Assembly: GCA_021604545.1 (NCBI GenBank)
Contig: BQJE01000001.1
Coordinates: 293,444 to 357,443, forward strand
Direction of reading: 5' to 3'
Length of the DNA: 64,000 bases
Source of the DNA: Micavibrio sp.
Lineage (GTDB): Bacteria > Pseudomonadota > Alphaproteobacteria > Micavibrionales > Micavibrionaceae
Below the pieces are notes generated by a model. That model made no database searches, was not told where the DNA came from, and saw only the letters and a list, made by a program, of their open reading frames with translations. Shown here one piece after another: positions 38,043 through 44,188 of this stretch. A program made the translations under genes and the position numbers. Position 1 is the first letter of the stretch, and the number at the start of each line of letters is the position of its first letter.

Positions 38043-38076
38043 GGGGCGCGCAAACAATGGCTAAAAGGGCTTTTTC

Positions 38077-38105
38077 TTGACATATTCACGGAAAAGCACC
38101 AAGAT
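38077..38105 (+). promoter_or_regulatory. possible promoter of the 38154 gene
   Basis: A perfect TTGACA at 38077-38082 and a weak CAAGAT at 38100-38105, 17 bases apart, on the plus strand. The -35 is convincing, the -10 is not. Confidence 0.35.
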
Positions 38106-38153
38106 GCGGCACAATCAATTTATAGAGTAATATATTATAAGGAGTAACGACTT

Positions 38154-38513
38154 ATGAAACTTTCGAATTTCTGGAAAAACTGCACAGTTGGAACCATGGT
38201 GTTGGGTGTTGTGGGTGCCACCAATATGCCAGTTGAAGAAGCGCATGCGCAGCCAAATCGTCACCAGCCAAGTTCTCATACAGTAAATCTACAGAACGGC
38301 ACAGTAGATAATTGGAGTGTAAAAGGACTAAAACCCGATTACAGTATCGATAATCCTGAGGACCGCCAATATTTGTATCGCGTTTTTGCCAGTACTGTTT
38401 GTTTGGATGAGGGTAAAGGGCAAGAAGGCTTTAGCCATCAGGGATGTATGCATGATCTGCTGATGGAGGTAGCCAGTAAGGATTATAACGGAGACTTGGC
38501 ACCTAGTCAGTAA
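38154..38513 (+). CDS. small exported protein, unknown
   Basis: 119 residues. The N-terminus has a basic start, a hydrophobic core (GTMVLGVVGATNM) and a likely cleavage after AHA near 33, so exported. The mature part has two Cys (STVCLDEG and HQGCMHDLL) and many His, Gln and Asn. AAGGAG lies 10 bases before the ATG, and a terminator follows, so it is a stand-alone transcript. No family recognised. Confidence 0.7.
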   Translation: MKLSNFWKNCTVGTMVLGVVGATNMPVEEAHAQPNRHQPSSHTVNLQNGTVDNWSVKGLKPDYSIDNPEDRQYLYRVFASTVCLDEGKGQEGFSHQGCMHDLLMEVASKDYNGDLAPSQ

Positions 38514-38532
38514 TCATTAAAAAAATTCTACG

Positions 38533-38560
38533 AAAAGCCCTCAATTCGGGGGCTTTTTTA
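38533..38560 (+). terminator. rho-independent terminator
   Basis: Stem AAAAGCCC/GGGCTTTT around a short loop, followed by a T-run, 20 bases after the stop of the small exported protein gene. Confidence 0.85.
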
Positions 38561-38587
38561 ATGGATGGTGGAGAGCGCTCACACACA

Positions 38588-38616
38588 TTGACTTGTTTCT
38601 GAAAAAGTCTTAGGTA
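38588..38616 (+). promoter_or_regulatory. possible dodecin promoter
   Basis: TTGACT at 38588-38593, a 17-base spacer and TAGGTA at 38611-38616. The -35 is good, the -10 poor. It sits 40 bases before the start codon. Confidence 0.3.
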
Positions 38617-38655
38617 AGGCTGTGTTTTAAGCCCCAATCATAAAGGAGATATCCC

Positions 38656-38859
38656 ATGTCTATTGCAAAAGTTACCGAGATTATCAGCGGCTCTTCCAAA
38701 AGCTTCGATGATGCTATCGAGCAGGGCATTAAGCGTGCCAATGAAACGCTGAAGAATGTTTCCGGTGCCTGGGTCAAAGATCAGAATGTTGTTATTGAGG
38801 GTGGTTCGGTCAAGGAATACCGCGTGACATTGAAGATTACGTTTGTTCTGACGGATTAG
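38656..38859 (+). CDS. dodecin family flavin-binding protein
   Basis: 67 residues, the normal length. The dodecin pattern is clear: VTEIISGSSKSFDDAIEQGI, then TLKNVSGAWVKDQNVVIEGG and YRVTLKITFVL. Dodecins form hollow dodecamers that store flavin or coenzyme A. The key Trp that stacks on the flavin is present (AWVKDQ). A strong AAAGGAGA site precedes the ATG. Single gene, convergent with the operon that follows. Confidence 0.92.
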   Translation: MSIAKVTEIISGSSKSFDDAIEQGIKRANETLKNVSGAWVKDQNVVIEGGSVKEYRVTLKITFVLTD

Positions 38860-38871
38860 TTTTAAAAGATA

Positions 38872-40278
38872 TCATCCCACACCGGGTGCGCTATGAGTGG
38901 TGCCAGCGCCGACAAGTTCCTGGTTTTGATGGGTTTCGGCTGTTGCGGGTTGCTCAGCGGTCATTGTGCTGGCTGGATCGTTTTGAGGCTGTTTTTGTAC
39001 GTGTTCGCTAACATGCTTCATAGCCTCTAGAAAACTATATTGCTGTAGGGTTTCAAGTCCAATCTGGTTGTCTTGTGCTTCTAGGGCTGTTTTATAGCGC
39101 TCATATGTTTCAGGATCACGCAACGCTTCTTCAAGAGGAATCACTTCCATTGTTTCTGGGTCTTTCATAGTTTCCGGGAGAGTTTGGCAGTCTTTGAAAA
39201 GTTCTTTTTGCGCCTGGGTAATATCTTCGGGTGAAGAACTTTCATTGAGGTCATATTTGGTTATAACATCGTTTATGGCGGCCAGAGGGTCTGCATCATT
39301 GCCGATTGATTTCTTAATGCCTTCAACTATTCCTTCCAAGATTCCCGGGTTTAAATCCACCCCATATTCTCGCAGTAGAGGTCTTAATGTTTCTGTTATA
39401 GGTATGGTAACCATAGCTTCTTCTGCGCCTGACATTCCAGCTTCTGCTAGACGCCCCTCAAGAGCGGCTGTGGCCGAGGAGGCTCCGGGAATGAAAGATT
39501 CAGCTGCTTCTGCAAATTTGCCTTCAGACAATAAATGGAGTCCAGCTATAATGCCGCCAGCAACCCCGACTCTTCTTAGGCCTTCAAACGCAGGTGAAGG
39601 AGCTTGGGTATGTACACCCGGCGTGTTCGGTACCTGACCGTTGGAAGCTATGCCGTTGGCTGGGCCGGTGGGGGTGGCTACAGTGGGTTTATTAATGTCG
39701 GGGTGGGCATGTTTTCTGGCAATGCCTTTTTCTAATCCATCTCTAATTTTTTTATCATTATCGTTAATAGGCTTTGCCCATTCTTGGCTATCTCCTATTC
39801 TTTGAGGTTTGATATCTTCTTTAGGAACACCTGTCTCAACTAATTTACCTTTTAAAGCTCTGACCCCATCTTTAAACGCATCCTTTGTGTCTCTTGTGTT
39901 TAATGCTCGCCCATTCCTTTTGGAGATTGGCTCACCTTGATCGTTAAGCGTATGCGCTTTGTAGAAGGTTCCAGCAAAGTTATCTCTAACCATTTTACTT
40001 TTTGGATCTGCGTTTGGTTTAGGGTCTTCCAATTGTTGGGGATTGAAAACTAAAATACTCTGAGTCTTGGAGTTACAAAAAGAAACGGAATCTTTATAAT
40101 TAGGATCGTTTGATGTGTTGATTATAAATTCAGTATCAGGGTCACTGAGCATATCTTTAATAAGCCCAACCATTTCTTGCCGAGAGCCGACATTAAATTC
40201 GTCCAGATGTTTTGCTTCAGCATGATGAGATATGCTTTCTGCTAAAGCTTCAATTTGGTCGGGGGTTAAATTCGCCAT
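38872..40278 (-). CDS. large orphan protein with glycine-rich helical core
   Basis: 468 residues, no signal peptide. The N-terminal 200 residues are polar and mostly helical. A Pro/Thr/Gly linker (about 198-230) follows, then a glycine- and alanine-rich hydrophobic segment (GVAGGIIAGLHLLSEGKF, about 237-255) and a block with ITETLRPLLREYGVDLNPG (about 293-312). The C-terminus is acidic and Gln-rich. The layout is like secreted effector or toxin-type proteins, but no enzyme motif is visible. It is the last gene of a three-gene leftward run with the 40347 gene and the CCA-type HD gene. A similar core occurs in the protein at 53890. Confidence 0.6.
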   Translation of the reverse strand: MANLTPDQIEALAESISHHAEAKHLDEFNVGSRQEMVGLIKDMLSDPDTEFIINTSNDPNYKDSVSFCNSKTQSILVFNPQQLEDPKPNADPKSKMVRDNFAGTFYKAHTLNDQGEPISKRNGRALNTRDTKDAFKDGVRALKGKLVETGVPKEDIKPQRIGDSQEWAKPINDNDKKIRDGLEKGIARKHAHPDINKPTVATPTGPANGIASNGQVPNTPGVHTQAPSPAFEGLRRVGVAGGIIAGLHLLSEGKFAEAAESFIPGASSATAALEGRLAEAGMSGAEEAMVTIPITETLRPLLREYGVDLNPGILEGIVEGIKKSIGNDADPLAAINDVITKYDLNESSSPEDITQAQKELFKDCQTLPETMKDPETMEVIPLEEALRDPETYERYKTALEAQDNQIGLETLQQYSFLEAMKHVSEHVQKQPQNDPASTMTAEQPATAETHQNQELVGAGTTHSAPGVG

Positions 40279-40346
40279 TATTCACACACTCTTAAAATTT
40301 ATAGTGACCAGTCGATTTTTTTACGTTACGATCCAGTCAGTTTTTT

Positions 40347-40745
40347 TTATAAAGAGCTTGTTGGTGTCAGCCCTTTTTCGTCCCACTTAATGTTTTGACT
40401 ATGAAGTTTTTCTAATACATTAAAATCATTATTTTCTAAGCCCGGCAAGCTATTATCGGTAGAGCGGATAAGGTTTGTATACGTAGCCCAATCACTAAAA
40501 TCCATTGGTACCAGTATAGGGTCCTTGCCCAAATCGAATTGCGTTTTCAGTTTCTCTATCATGTTTTTAATGTCATCAAGGCTTAGCATTATAGCTGCCT
40601 GGTCAATTATTCTTGGGTCGTGCCAGTTTTCTGACATTGCAGATAATGTTCTCAAGACAACGTCTAGGTCCTGCCGCTCAAACGGAACATTAATGCTTGT
40701 TATTTCTTCCATGTTTGCATCTTTCCATTGTTCTTGGTTCGTCAT
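40347..40745 (-). CDS. hypothetical protein
   Basis: 132 residues, acidic and soluble, helical with no Cys and no signal peptide (IDQAAIMLSLDDIKNMIEKL). An AGGGA site lies 8 bases before the ATG. It lies 23 bases after the HD gene and 68 before the large orphan gene, so all three may be one transcript. No family recognised; a cognate chaperone or immunity-type partner of the large orphan protein is a guess from position and size only. Confidence 0.6.
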   Translation of the reverse strand: MTNQEQWKDANMEEITSINVPFERQDLDVVLRTLSAMSENWHDPRIIDQAAIMLSLDDIKNMIEKLKTQFDLGKDPILVPMDFSDWATYTNLIRSTDNSLPGLENNDFNVLEKLHSQNIKWDEKGLTPTSSL

Positions 40746-40768
40746 TATGCATTCCCTACAGGTTTCTA

Positions 40769-41527
40769 TTAATCTAAAGCCACATTCATATCATTTTTAA
40801 CGATCTTTACTGCCTCAACGCGTCTTTGTTTAATCATGTCATTACTCAATTCTTGGCCGTCTGAATCCTGCGTCTCTACATCTTTTACGGTCTGTAGTAC
40901 TGTCCGTAGCAACTCAGCTTGCGGATAAGGGCGGTCCTCTAGCCCTAGTCGGCCTTGTGCATCTGCTTGGGCGGCCAGGATAAACTGTTCGAATACGCCG
41001 GGGTTGCCTAAAGCATTTGTACGTTCCAGCAATTTTACCAATGTCCCTGGTTTCGACTCTAATGCACGGTGCGCATGGAGGTGATAGCGTGCTACATGTT
41101 CTGCGAGTTCAGAAATGTGTTCTGGGACACCTAGGCGTTCTTTTATAGCTTGTATCGGGGCAACACCTAATTCTTCATGATTGTGATGCTTAGGCCAGTG
41201 TGCTTGATCGGTTAAGGCCTTGCCCAAATCATGTACCAAGGCGGCATAACGAACAGCCAAATCATCACTTAATTCTGCCGCTCTTTTTAATGTCATGAGG
41301 GTATGAATTCCGGTGTCTATTTCCGGATGGTATTCAGGCGTTTGAGGGACGCCAAATAGGGCCTCTACTTCCGGTAAAAGCGTCTTTAATTCACCAGTAT
41401 CGTATAATTTTTGAATAAATTCTTCTGGATGATCTCCGCGTAAGCCGTGCGCAAAGCTTTCCCAATTATGTTCAGGATTGGTCGTTGAAACTGGCTCTAT
41501 TTCGGGCAAAGCCTCTAAATTGCTCAT
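40769..41527 (-). CDS. stand-alone HD domain like the C-terminal part of bacterial CCA-adding enzyme
   Basis: 252 residues. From about 45 to 245 it follows the HD half of gammaproteobacterial CCA tRNA nucleotidyltransferase: LLPEVEALFGVPQTPEYHPE, DTGIHTLMTLKRAAELSDD, AALVHDLGKAL (HD at 99-100), HHNHEELG, then RLGLEDRPYPQAELLRTVL and IKQRRVEAVK. The N-terminal nucleotidyltransferase head is missing, and the first 40 residues are unrelated. In full enzymes this domain has 2',3'-cyclic phosphodiesterase and phosphatase activity. Whether it acts on tRNA or another nucleotide is unknown. First gene of the orphan run. Confidence 0.8.
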   Translation of the reverse strand: MSNLEALPEIEPVSTTNPEHNWESFAHGLRGDHPEEFIQKLYDTGELKTLLPEVEALFGVPQTPEYHPEIDTGIHTLMTLKRAAELSDDLAVRYAALVHDLGKALTDQAHWPKHHNHEELGVAPIQAIKERLGVPEHISELAEHVARYHLHAHRALESKPGTLVKLLERTNALGNPGVFEQFILAAQADAQGRLGLEDRPYPQAELLRTVLQTVKDVETQDSDGQELSNDMIKQRRVEAVKIVKNDMNVALD

Positions 41528-41612
41528 TTTACTACCGTTTTTCCCTAAATTAGCTCACATATAATTATACATAAAGGAAAAAATAAAGTCAAAATACTGA
41601 AAAATAAAGGCT

Positions 41613-43562: not shown

Positions 43563-43840
43563 GAACGGGGGAAATTCTTGGGTTAAGCATCTGATTTAAT
43601 GAACTAAATCATGACCCTTCTTTTCGTTCCGCGAAAAACGCATTTCCGTAACGTTTTTAGTCTAAAATTTACAATTATTTCAGTAGGTTATAGCATAAAA
43701 TTGTGAGTTTTTCAAGGTTTATTCCTGAAGCTTGTTTAGAGATGGAAAAGCGTGCTTATTTTGATGCTCTCTGCAAAATTTGCACGTAAATTACGAATTA
43801 TGGTATATTTCCATAGTTTTTAAATAGATGGAGAATGATT

Positions 43841-44188
43841 GTGGGTTATTGGAATACAACAAAGAATTTACTAGCGTTTACTATATTTGGAGGTGTAGCA
43901 ACTTGTGTTGGAGTCCAGACTTGGGATGCTGCCGATGTAGAAGTTAAACTTGATACTAACAAGTTAGGGAAGAATCTTTATCAGGGCGGTAAAAATGGAG
44001 GCAAGGGCGTTGCAGAAACAGCCGAGTCTTTGTTGAGTGAGGCTTATAAAGATTTTAAAAGTGGACAAGGTAGCGCCGCGTCGTCACAGATAAGCTGTGA
44101 TAAGTTGACAGATCTGGTTGCCGGTGGGCGCGCTTCCTGGCAACAGCTCGACGATTATATGGCATCACCCAGAAATTGCCGTGATTAA
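43841..44188 (+). CDS. small exported or membrane-anchored protein, unknown
   Basis: 115 residues from a GTG start with GGAG 7 bases upstream; an ATG two codons earlier is too close to that site. The N-terminus has a hydrophobic segment (NLLAFTIFGGVATCVGVQTW), a signal or anchor. The mature part is Gly/Lys-rich then helical with two Cys (ISCDKLTDL and SPRNC). No family recognised. It is convergent with cobS, the stops only 3 bases apart, and lies between cobS and cobT. Confidence 0.6.
   Translation: MGYWNTTKNLLAFTIFGGVATCVGVQTWDAADVEVKLDTNKLGKNLYQGGKNGGKGVAETAESLLSEAYKDFKSGQGSAASSQISCDKLTDLVAGGRASWQQLDDYMASPRNCRD

What the first reader, a model, noticed from the sequence alone, without database searches (positions are those of the whole stretch)
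40769..41527. Free-standing HD domain of the CCA-adding enzyme type
The sequence follows the HD half of gammaproteobacterial CCA tRNA nucleotidyltransferase from LLPEVEALFGVPQ to QRRVEAVK but has no nucleotidyltransferase head. Alphaproteobacterial CCA enzymes usually lack this domain, so it was probably acquired and separated. It heads an operon with two unknown proteins, so it may have a new substrate.
Basis: partly seen in the sequence, partly recalled or inferred. Interest (0 to 1): 0.62.

Follow-up and report, generated by a model that had tools for sequence, protein, structure and literature searches.

The report
Loose tRNA-repair domain in toxin cassette
A gene for only the tail half of a tRNA-repair enzyme heads a small mobile gene cassette that also carries a probable tRNA-cutting toxin and its likely antidote, which suggests that the tail may help the bacterium mend tRNAs damaged by its own weapon.

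Summary
In detail: window 40769-41527 (minus strand) encodes the HD half of a gammaproteobacterial Cca with every catalytic residue kept and no head. It is not a broken CCA gene: the host has a separate intact HD-less CCA enzyme, and the 85 bp upstream hold no coding remnant.

The new result is its context. In all five Micavibrio-type genomes that have it (of 142 in the order) this HD gene lies just upstream of an effector-type operon. In four of the five the effector starts with a domain whose predicted structure best matches colicin D tRNase, with a small immunity-like gene between. In the window the cassette is an insertion between cobT and hisS; three congeners lack it. Related loci show polymorphic-toxin hallmarks, and the order nearly universally carries a Dot/Icm-type secretion system. 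In G056 two HD copies are 93% identical, their paired small proteins 19%.

Best reading (confidence 0.4): the HD is a shared self-protection enzyme that heals 2',3'-cyclic-phosphate tRNA ends left by tRNase effectors. The association is shown; tRNase activity and healing are inferred. One locus pairs the HD with a zeta-like effector, which weakens a strict tRNase link.

The parts
40769..41527 (-). Free-standing Cca-type HD phosphohydrolase, 252 aa; first gene of the cassette
   Evidence: NF008137 E 1.6e-72 over model 169-405/409; metal and catalytic residues identical in 8/8 free-standing and 74/74 full-length enzymes
40347..40745 (-). Small protein, 132 aa, immunity-like partner; fast-evolving family
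   Evidence: Homologs directly downstream of the HD in G056, G110/L007 and G116/L009; no known family; AF2 pLDDT 81, no PDB match
38872..40278 (-). Large modular effector-like protein, 468 aa
   Evidence: N-terminal ~190 aa shared with G056, G110, G116 and G025, remainder divergent
39700..40278 (-). N-terminal predicted colicin D-like tRNase domain (residues 1-193); Hxx[ED] at H24-E27, invariant H19, TxxK at T104-K107
   Evidence: AF2 pLDDT 80, pTM 0.78; top five PDB Foldseek matches all colicin D; motif list from PMC3482391; alignment
41564..41592 (-). Promoter-like site TTGACT-17-TATAAT, 37 bp before the HD start codon
   Evidence: 11 of 12 consensus matches, best of the region; consensus only
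38058..41612 (.). Inserted islet between hisS and cobT, about 3.55 kb; boundaries approximate
   Evidence: cobT and hisS adjacent in congeners G001 and G003, one unrelated small gene in G002
38154..38513 (+). 119-aa secreted-looking protein inside the islet; role unknown, may not belong
   Evidence: No family match; absent from that site in congeners

Best explanation
The HD protein is an accessory enzyme of a horizontally acquired polymorphic effector-immunity cassette. The large protein carries an N-terminal BECR-type (colicin D-like) tRNase domain and is probably exported by the Dot/Icm-type T4SS; the small protein is its specific immunity protein. BECR tRNases leave 2',3'-cyclic phosphate ends. 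The HD half of Cca, which kept its active site, opens and removes such phosphates from tRNA ends, so that the host's own HD-less CCA enzyme (if the cut is at the acceptor end) or an RNA ligase (if it is in the anticodon) can restore the tRNA. It thus gives toxin-independent, generic self-protection next to toxin-specific immunity. Shown: HD identity, catalytic residues, cassette association, insertion, duplication with purifying selection. Inferred: tRNase activity, secretion, end healing.
For: HD gene in 5 of 142 genomes of the order, each time just upstream of an effector-type operon (in G110 this joins two contigs by inference). Close toxin domain in 5 of 142; 4 genomes have both, hypergeometric p 1.5e-6, phylogeny ignored. 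The N-terminal domain's top five PDB matches are all colicin D, with Hxx[ED] and [TS]xx[KR]. Truncated toxin modules and several immunity-like genes in G025 and G030. Two HD copies in G056: 93% identical, dN 0.035, dS 0.237; their small partners 19% identical, so the HD is generic and the small protein specific. Dot/Icm DotI in 138 of 142 genomes; DotH and DotI in the host. A BECR tRNase (CdiA-CT EC869) leaves 2',3'-cyclic phosphate ends on tRNA acceptor stems (PMC9071432); Cca HD removes 2',3'-cyclic phosphates at tRNA 3' ends (PMC10673834 citing Yakunin 2004). Host CCA enzyme lacks an HD.
Against: In UBA1672 (L008) the HD precedes an effector with a zeta-like, not BECR, N-terminus, and a BECR-like stretch there is within shuffled noise. 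G025 has the toxin domain without the HD. Foldseek support is weak (E 0.08-0.3, TM-score 0.39-0.44 on the small colicin D domain); no sequence-level match to colicin D; colicin D's [KH]K motif is not evident. The Nitrospira relative (68% identical) has no effector nearby. No activity has been measured.
Confidence: 0.4

Rival explanations
1. The HD protein is a structural or regulatory partner of the effector operon (RNA-binding chaperone, export adaptor or tRNA sensor controlling expression) and its hydrolase activity is secondary.
For: Always first gene of the operon whatever the effector N-terminus, zeta-like case included; retains body helices that precede the HD in Cca.
Against: All metal and catalytic residues are kept in every copy, which a scaffold would not need; a separate ~111-aa order-wide family often near dotI is a better adaptor candidate.
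Confidence: 0.2
2. General tRNA 3'-end maintenance: the HD supplies the cyclic phosphodiesterase that the HD-less alphaproteobacterial CCA enzyme lacks, and merely travels with the cassette.
For: Host CCA enzyme has no HD; free-standing HDs also occur without an effector cassette on Variovorax plasmids and in a Nitrospira MAG.
Against: 137 of 142 genomes of the order do without it, and where present there it is never away from an effector operon.
Confidence: 0.17
3. HD and small protein form a toxin-antitoxin pair of their own: HD is a tRNA-end or nucleotide hydrolase toxin, the small protein its antitoxin.
For: HD-small is a repeated unit in G056 and the pair is tightly spaced.
Against: Small proteins also occur without HD in G025 and G030; L008 has HD without a small homolog; HD copies barely diverge while small proteins diverge freely, unlike co-evolving toxin-antitoxin pairs.
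Confidence: 0.1
4. Broken CCA gene: a pseudogene remnant of a gammaproteobacterial Cca.
For: Ends match the C-terminal half of Cca.
Against: No head upstream or elsewhere beyond the intact CCA gene; intact free-standing homologs in several genomes; dN/dS about 0.15 between duplicates.
Confidence: 0.01

Closest known systems
Multifunctional Cca of Gammaproteobacteria (E. coli Cca HD domain, 2',3'-cyclic phosphodiesterase/2'-nucleotidase/phosphatase)
   Same: Same HD sequence family, all catalytic residues, part of the tRNA-binding body
   Different: No nucleotidyltransferase head; separate gene in an effector operon; E187 and R/K191 replaced by Q in cassette copies
Colicin D and BECR-fold CdiA-CT tRNases with immunity proteins
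   Same: Predicted fold, Hxx[ED] and [TS]xx[KR] motifs, adjacent small immunity-like gene
   Different: Domain is N-terminal, not C-terminal; no sequence-level match; immunity-like gene upstream; extra HD gene
Polymorphic toxin systems (Zhang et al. 2012, PMC3482391)
   Same: Exchangeable toxin domain on shared body segments, truncated toxin modules, clustered immunity-like genes
   Different: Toxin end is N-terminal; a phosphohydrolase accessory is not described there (no 'HD domain' or 'CCA' in the held text)
Bacteria-killing T4BSS of Pseudomonas putida IsoF (kib, PMC9519443)
   Same: Dot/Icm-type machine with cytosolic effector-immunity pair
   Different: Different effector; no tRNase in the held text searched
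RNA-repair systems tied to ribotoxins (Pnkp1-Rnl-Hen1, PMC4411300; RtcB operon, PMC7790460)
   Same: Same logic: heal or rejoin damaged RNA ends
   Different: No kinase or ligase in this cassette; the candidate repair enzyme sits with the weapon itself

Membership tests
Multifunctional Cca (CCA-adding enzyme) | Nucleotidyltransferase head (PF01743) | tested here: not met
   Model coverage starts at 169 of 409; only PF01743 hit in the genome is another gene
Multifunctional Cca (CCA-adding enzyme) | HD metal and catalytic residues | tested here: met
   H75, H99, D100, K103, H114, H117, H149, H153, D189 identical in 8/8 free-standing and 74/74 full-length
Multifunctional Cca (CCA-adding enzyme) | HD lineage nested in gamma Cca | tested here: met
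   Free-standing set one side of a branch, 85/95; cassette type plus Nitrospira 99/89
Colicin D-type BECR tRNase (large protein, N-terminus) | BECR fold | tested here: inconclusive
   Top five PDB matches all colicin D, prob 0.60-0.84, but E 0.08-0.3 and TM-score 0.39-0.44 for the small domain
Colicin D-type BECR tRNase (large protein, N-terminus) | Motifs [KH]K, Hxx[ED], [TS]xxK | tested here: inconclusive
   Hxx[ED] in nearly all, [TS]xx[KR] in most, [KH]K not evident
Colicin D-type BECR tRNase (large protein, N-terminus) | Sequence match to a known family | tested here: not met
   No Pfam, NCBIfam, PHROGs or PDB sequence match
Polymorphic toxin system | Exchangeable toxin domains on shared body | tested here: met
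   L008 zeta-like and L009 tRNase-like N-termini share a 206-aa body segment at 38%; L008 and G056 share an 80-aa tail at 55%
Polymorphic toxin system | Orphan toxin modules and immunity genes | tested here: met
   G025 and G030 truncated N-terminal ORFs with extra small genes
Polymorphic toxin system | Toxicity neutralised by the small protein | not testable with these tools
   Needs an expression experiment
T4BSS effector | Host encodes a T4BSS | tested here: met
   DotI E 2.4e-65 and DotH E 5.1e-69 in the host; DotI in 138/142 genomes
T4BSS effector | Translocation into target cells | not testable with these tools
   Needs a secretion assay

The most novel reading that the evidence does not exclude
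A tRNA-end-healing enzyme carved out of Cca serves as a generic second layer of immunity inside a mobile tRNase-effector cassette: weapon, specific antidote and damage repair in one operon.
Probability: 0.38. Interest if true: 0.82.

Novelty: new variant of a known kind. Interest (0 to 1): 0.62.

Why it matters
Immunity to tRNase toxins is known as toxin-specific inhibition. A repair enzyme shared across effector types, with immunity proteins that diverge around it, would be a different protection strategy. It would also give the HD half of Cca, reported to remove products of spontaneous tRNA-end damage, a defined function that can be tested apart from CCA addition, and it points to Dot/Icm-type effector-immunity operons in Micavibrio-type Alphaproteobacteria.

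Tried and rejected
Broken-CCA idea: rejected. Phage origin: viral contigs and the listed tailed-phage hits give Cca-type proteins with a head, about 30-34% identical; no toxin-domain hit in viral contigs. CRISPR Cas3-like HD: weak hits only. VirB-type T4SS delivery: VirB4 absent from the host, G056, G116 and G038. Hidden BECR domain in the L008 effector: hhalign score 19.5 against a shuffled maximum of 19.9, not supported. Small protein: no informative fold match. Variovorax plasmid neighbours: not the same cassette. G387 second HD copy: other context; G218 match lies at a contig end. BFVD fold search: nothing significant. A search for the HD in the Nitrospira family was not possible (wrong kind of handle). 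Profile of the toxin domain against PDB sequences: only chance hits.

Full report
OBSERVATION. The ORF at 40769-41527 lies on the minus strand and encodes 252 aa. It matches the NCBIfam model of multifunctional Cca from position 169 to 405 of 409 with E 1.6e-72 and Pfam HD with E 7.5e-10. E. coli Cca H255-D256 correspond to H99-D100. All metal and catalytic positions examined are identical in 8 of 8 free-standing proteins and 74 of 74 full-length Gammaproteobacteria (a set dominated by Acinetobacter). So this is an intact HD with the adjoining body helices and without the nucleotidyltransferase head.

NOT A BROKEN GENE. PF01743 is found once in the genome (99.98% complete), in a 403-aa gene with the head, RNA-binding and tRNA_NucTran2_2 domains and no HD. 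Between the HD start and the cobT stop there are 85 AT-rich bases with stops in all six frames but with the best promoter-like site of the region on the HD strand (11 of 12 matches).

ORIGIN. In a tree of 55 HD halves the free-standing proteins form one side of a branch (85/95; present in 84% of bootstrap trees), nested among gammaproteobacterial Cca; the cassette-type proteins plus a Nitrospira homolog have 99/89, and the window protein is sister to the Nitrospira one (100/95). The Variovorax row is a long branch and its place is unsure. In 399 sampled Pseudomonadota genomes, 215 match, nearly all full length; the only other same-class match had E 1.2e-4. In the window's order 5 of 142 genomes have the gene. 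Transfer and separation of the domain are therefore well supported; direction and date are not resolved.

CASSETTE. The next two genes are 23 and 68 bp downstream. In G056 (L005/L010) the order is HD-small-HD-small-large-111 aa; in G116 (L009) HD-small-large-104 aa; in G110 HD-small at a contig end and small-large-107 aa at the start of another contig (joined by inference); in G122 (L008) HD-66 aa-81 aa-large-112 aa. The large proteins share a 190-aa N-terminal domain in the window, G056, G110, G116 and G025, while L008 has a zeta-toxin-like N-terminus (E 1.4e-4, just below the Pfam cut-off). L008 and L009 share a 206-aa body segment and L008 and G056 an 80-aa C-terminal tail. This mix-and-match build, with truncated N-terminal ORFs and extra small genes in G025 and G030, is what defines polymorphic toxin loci, here with the toxin end N-terminal and the immunity-like gene upstream.

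INSERTION. In congeners G001 and G003 cobT and hisS are neighbours with no islet; in G002 one unrelated 139-aa gene lies between them. None of the three has the HD. The three cassette genes have GC 0.39-0.46 against 0.57 in cobT and 0.49 in hisS.

TOXIN DOMAIN. AlphaFold2 on three sequences gave pLDDT 80, pTM 0.78. The five best PDB matches of 350,542 chains are all colicin D tRNase, probability 0.60-0.84 but E 0.08-0.3. PMC3482391 lists colicin D motifs [KH]K, Hxx[ED], [ST] and [TS]xxK. The family has Hxx[ED] (window H24-E27) in nearly all members, an invariant His (window H19) just before it, and TFYK/TFYR or TFLK at 104-107 in the close members; [KH]K is not evident. No sequence search finds colicin D. 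The domain was not found in 384 other sampled genomes of the class. I hold BECR-type RNase as likely (about 0.65), not proven.

DELIVERY. VirB4 is absent from the host, but DotI/IcmL is found in 138 of 142 genomes of the order, and the host locus L201 encodes DotH and DotI. A T4BSS is known to deliver a toxic effector with an immunity partner into bacteria in P. putida (PMC9519443). Export of this effector is inference.

ROLE OF THE HD. In G056 the HD copies are 93% identical with dN/dS about 0.15, while their paired small proteins are 19% identical. Specific immunity should diverge; the HD does not, so its target is probably common rather than toxin-specific. BECR tRNases such as CdiA-CT EC869 leave 2',3'-cyclic phosphate ends (PMC9071432), and Cca HD domains are reported to remove 2',3'-cyclic phosphates at tRNA 3' ends (PMC10673834 citing Yakunin 2004). 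Healing of toxin-cut tRNA for the HD-less host CCA enzyme is the simplest reading that joins these facts. The L008 zeta-like effector and the effector-free Nitrospira and Variovorax copies are the main evidence against a strict link. The E187Q and R/K191Q changes next to D189 in all seven cassette-type copies may mark a changed substrate.

LITERATURE. A search for free-standing HD, tRNA nucleotidyltransferase, immunity and polymorphic toxin found no paper describing this arrangement; the held library covers open-licence papers only.

Noticed in passing
L005 3800-4135; L008 9957-10295; L009 8677-8991; host L199 3252-4189: A ~111-aa unknown family follows effector genes and occurs in 101 of 142 genomes of the order in several copies, often about 10-12 kb from dotI: a candidate Dot/Icm effector chaperone or adaptor family.
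   Followed up: partly
window 43835-44188 (+): The gap between cobT and cobS holds this 117-aa orphan; other small genes sit there in congeners and none in G001: a second variable insertion spot.
   Followed up: no
L009 4364-5575 (-): A 403-aa phage-type integrase-like gene lies about 350 bp from the HD cassette in SZUA-429, consistent with mobility.
   Followed up: no
L006 4862-5839: Nitrospira RSF12 has tandem, partly broken small-like genes upstream of the HD (hhalign 64.5% probability to the G030/G122 small proteins): possible orphan immunity island.
   Followed up: partly
L085 5947-6657: Variovorax plasmids carry another free-standing Cca-type HD in an unrelated context.
   Followed up: partly
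L116 3-5954: In G038 an effector operon of this family lies close to a TraG/DotL-like coupling ATPase fragment (PF12696 E 2e-5), with an argS-like gene between.
   Followed up: no
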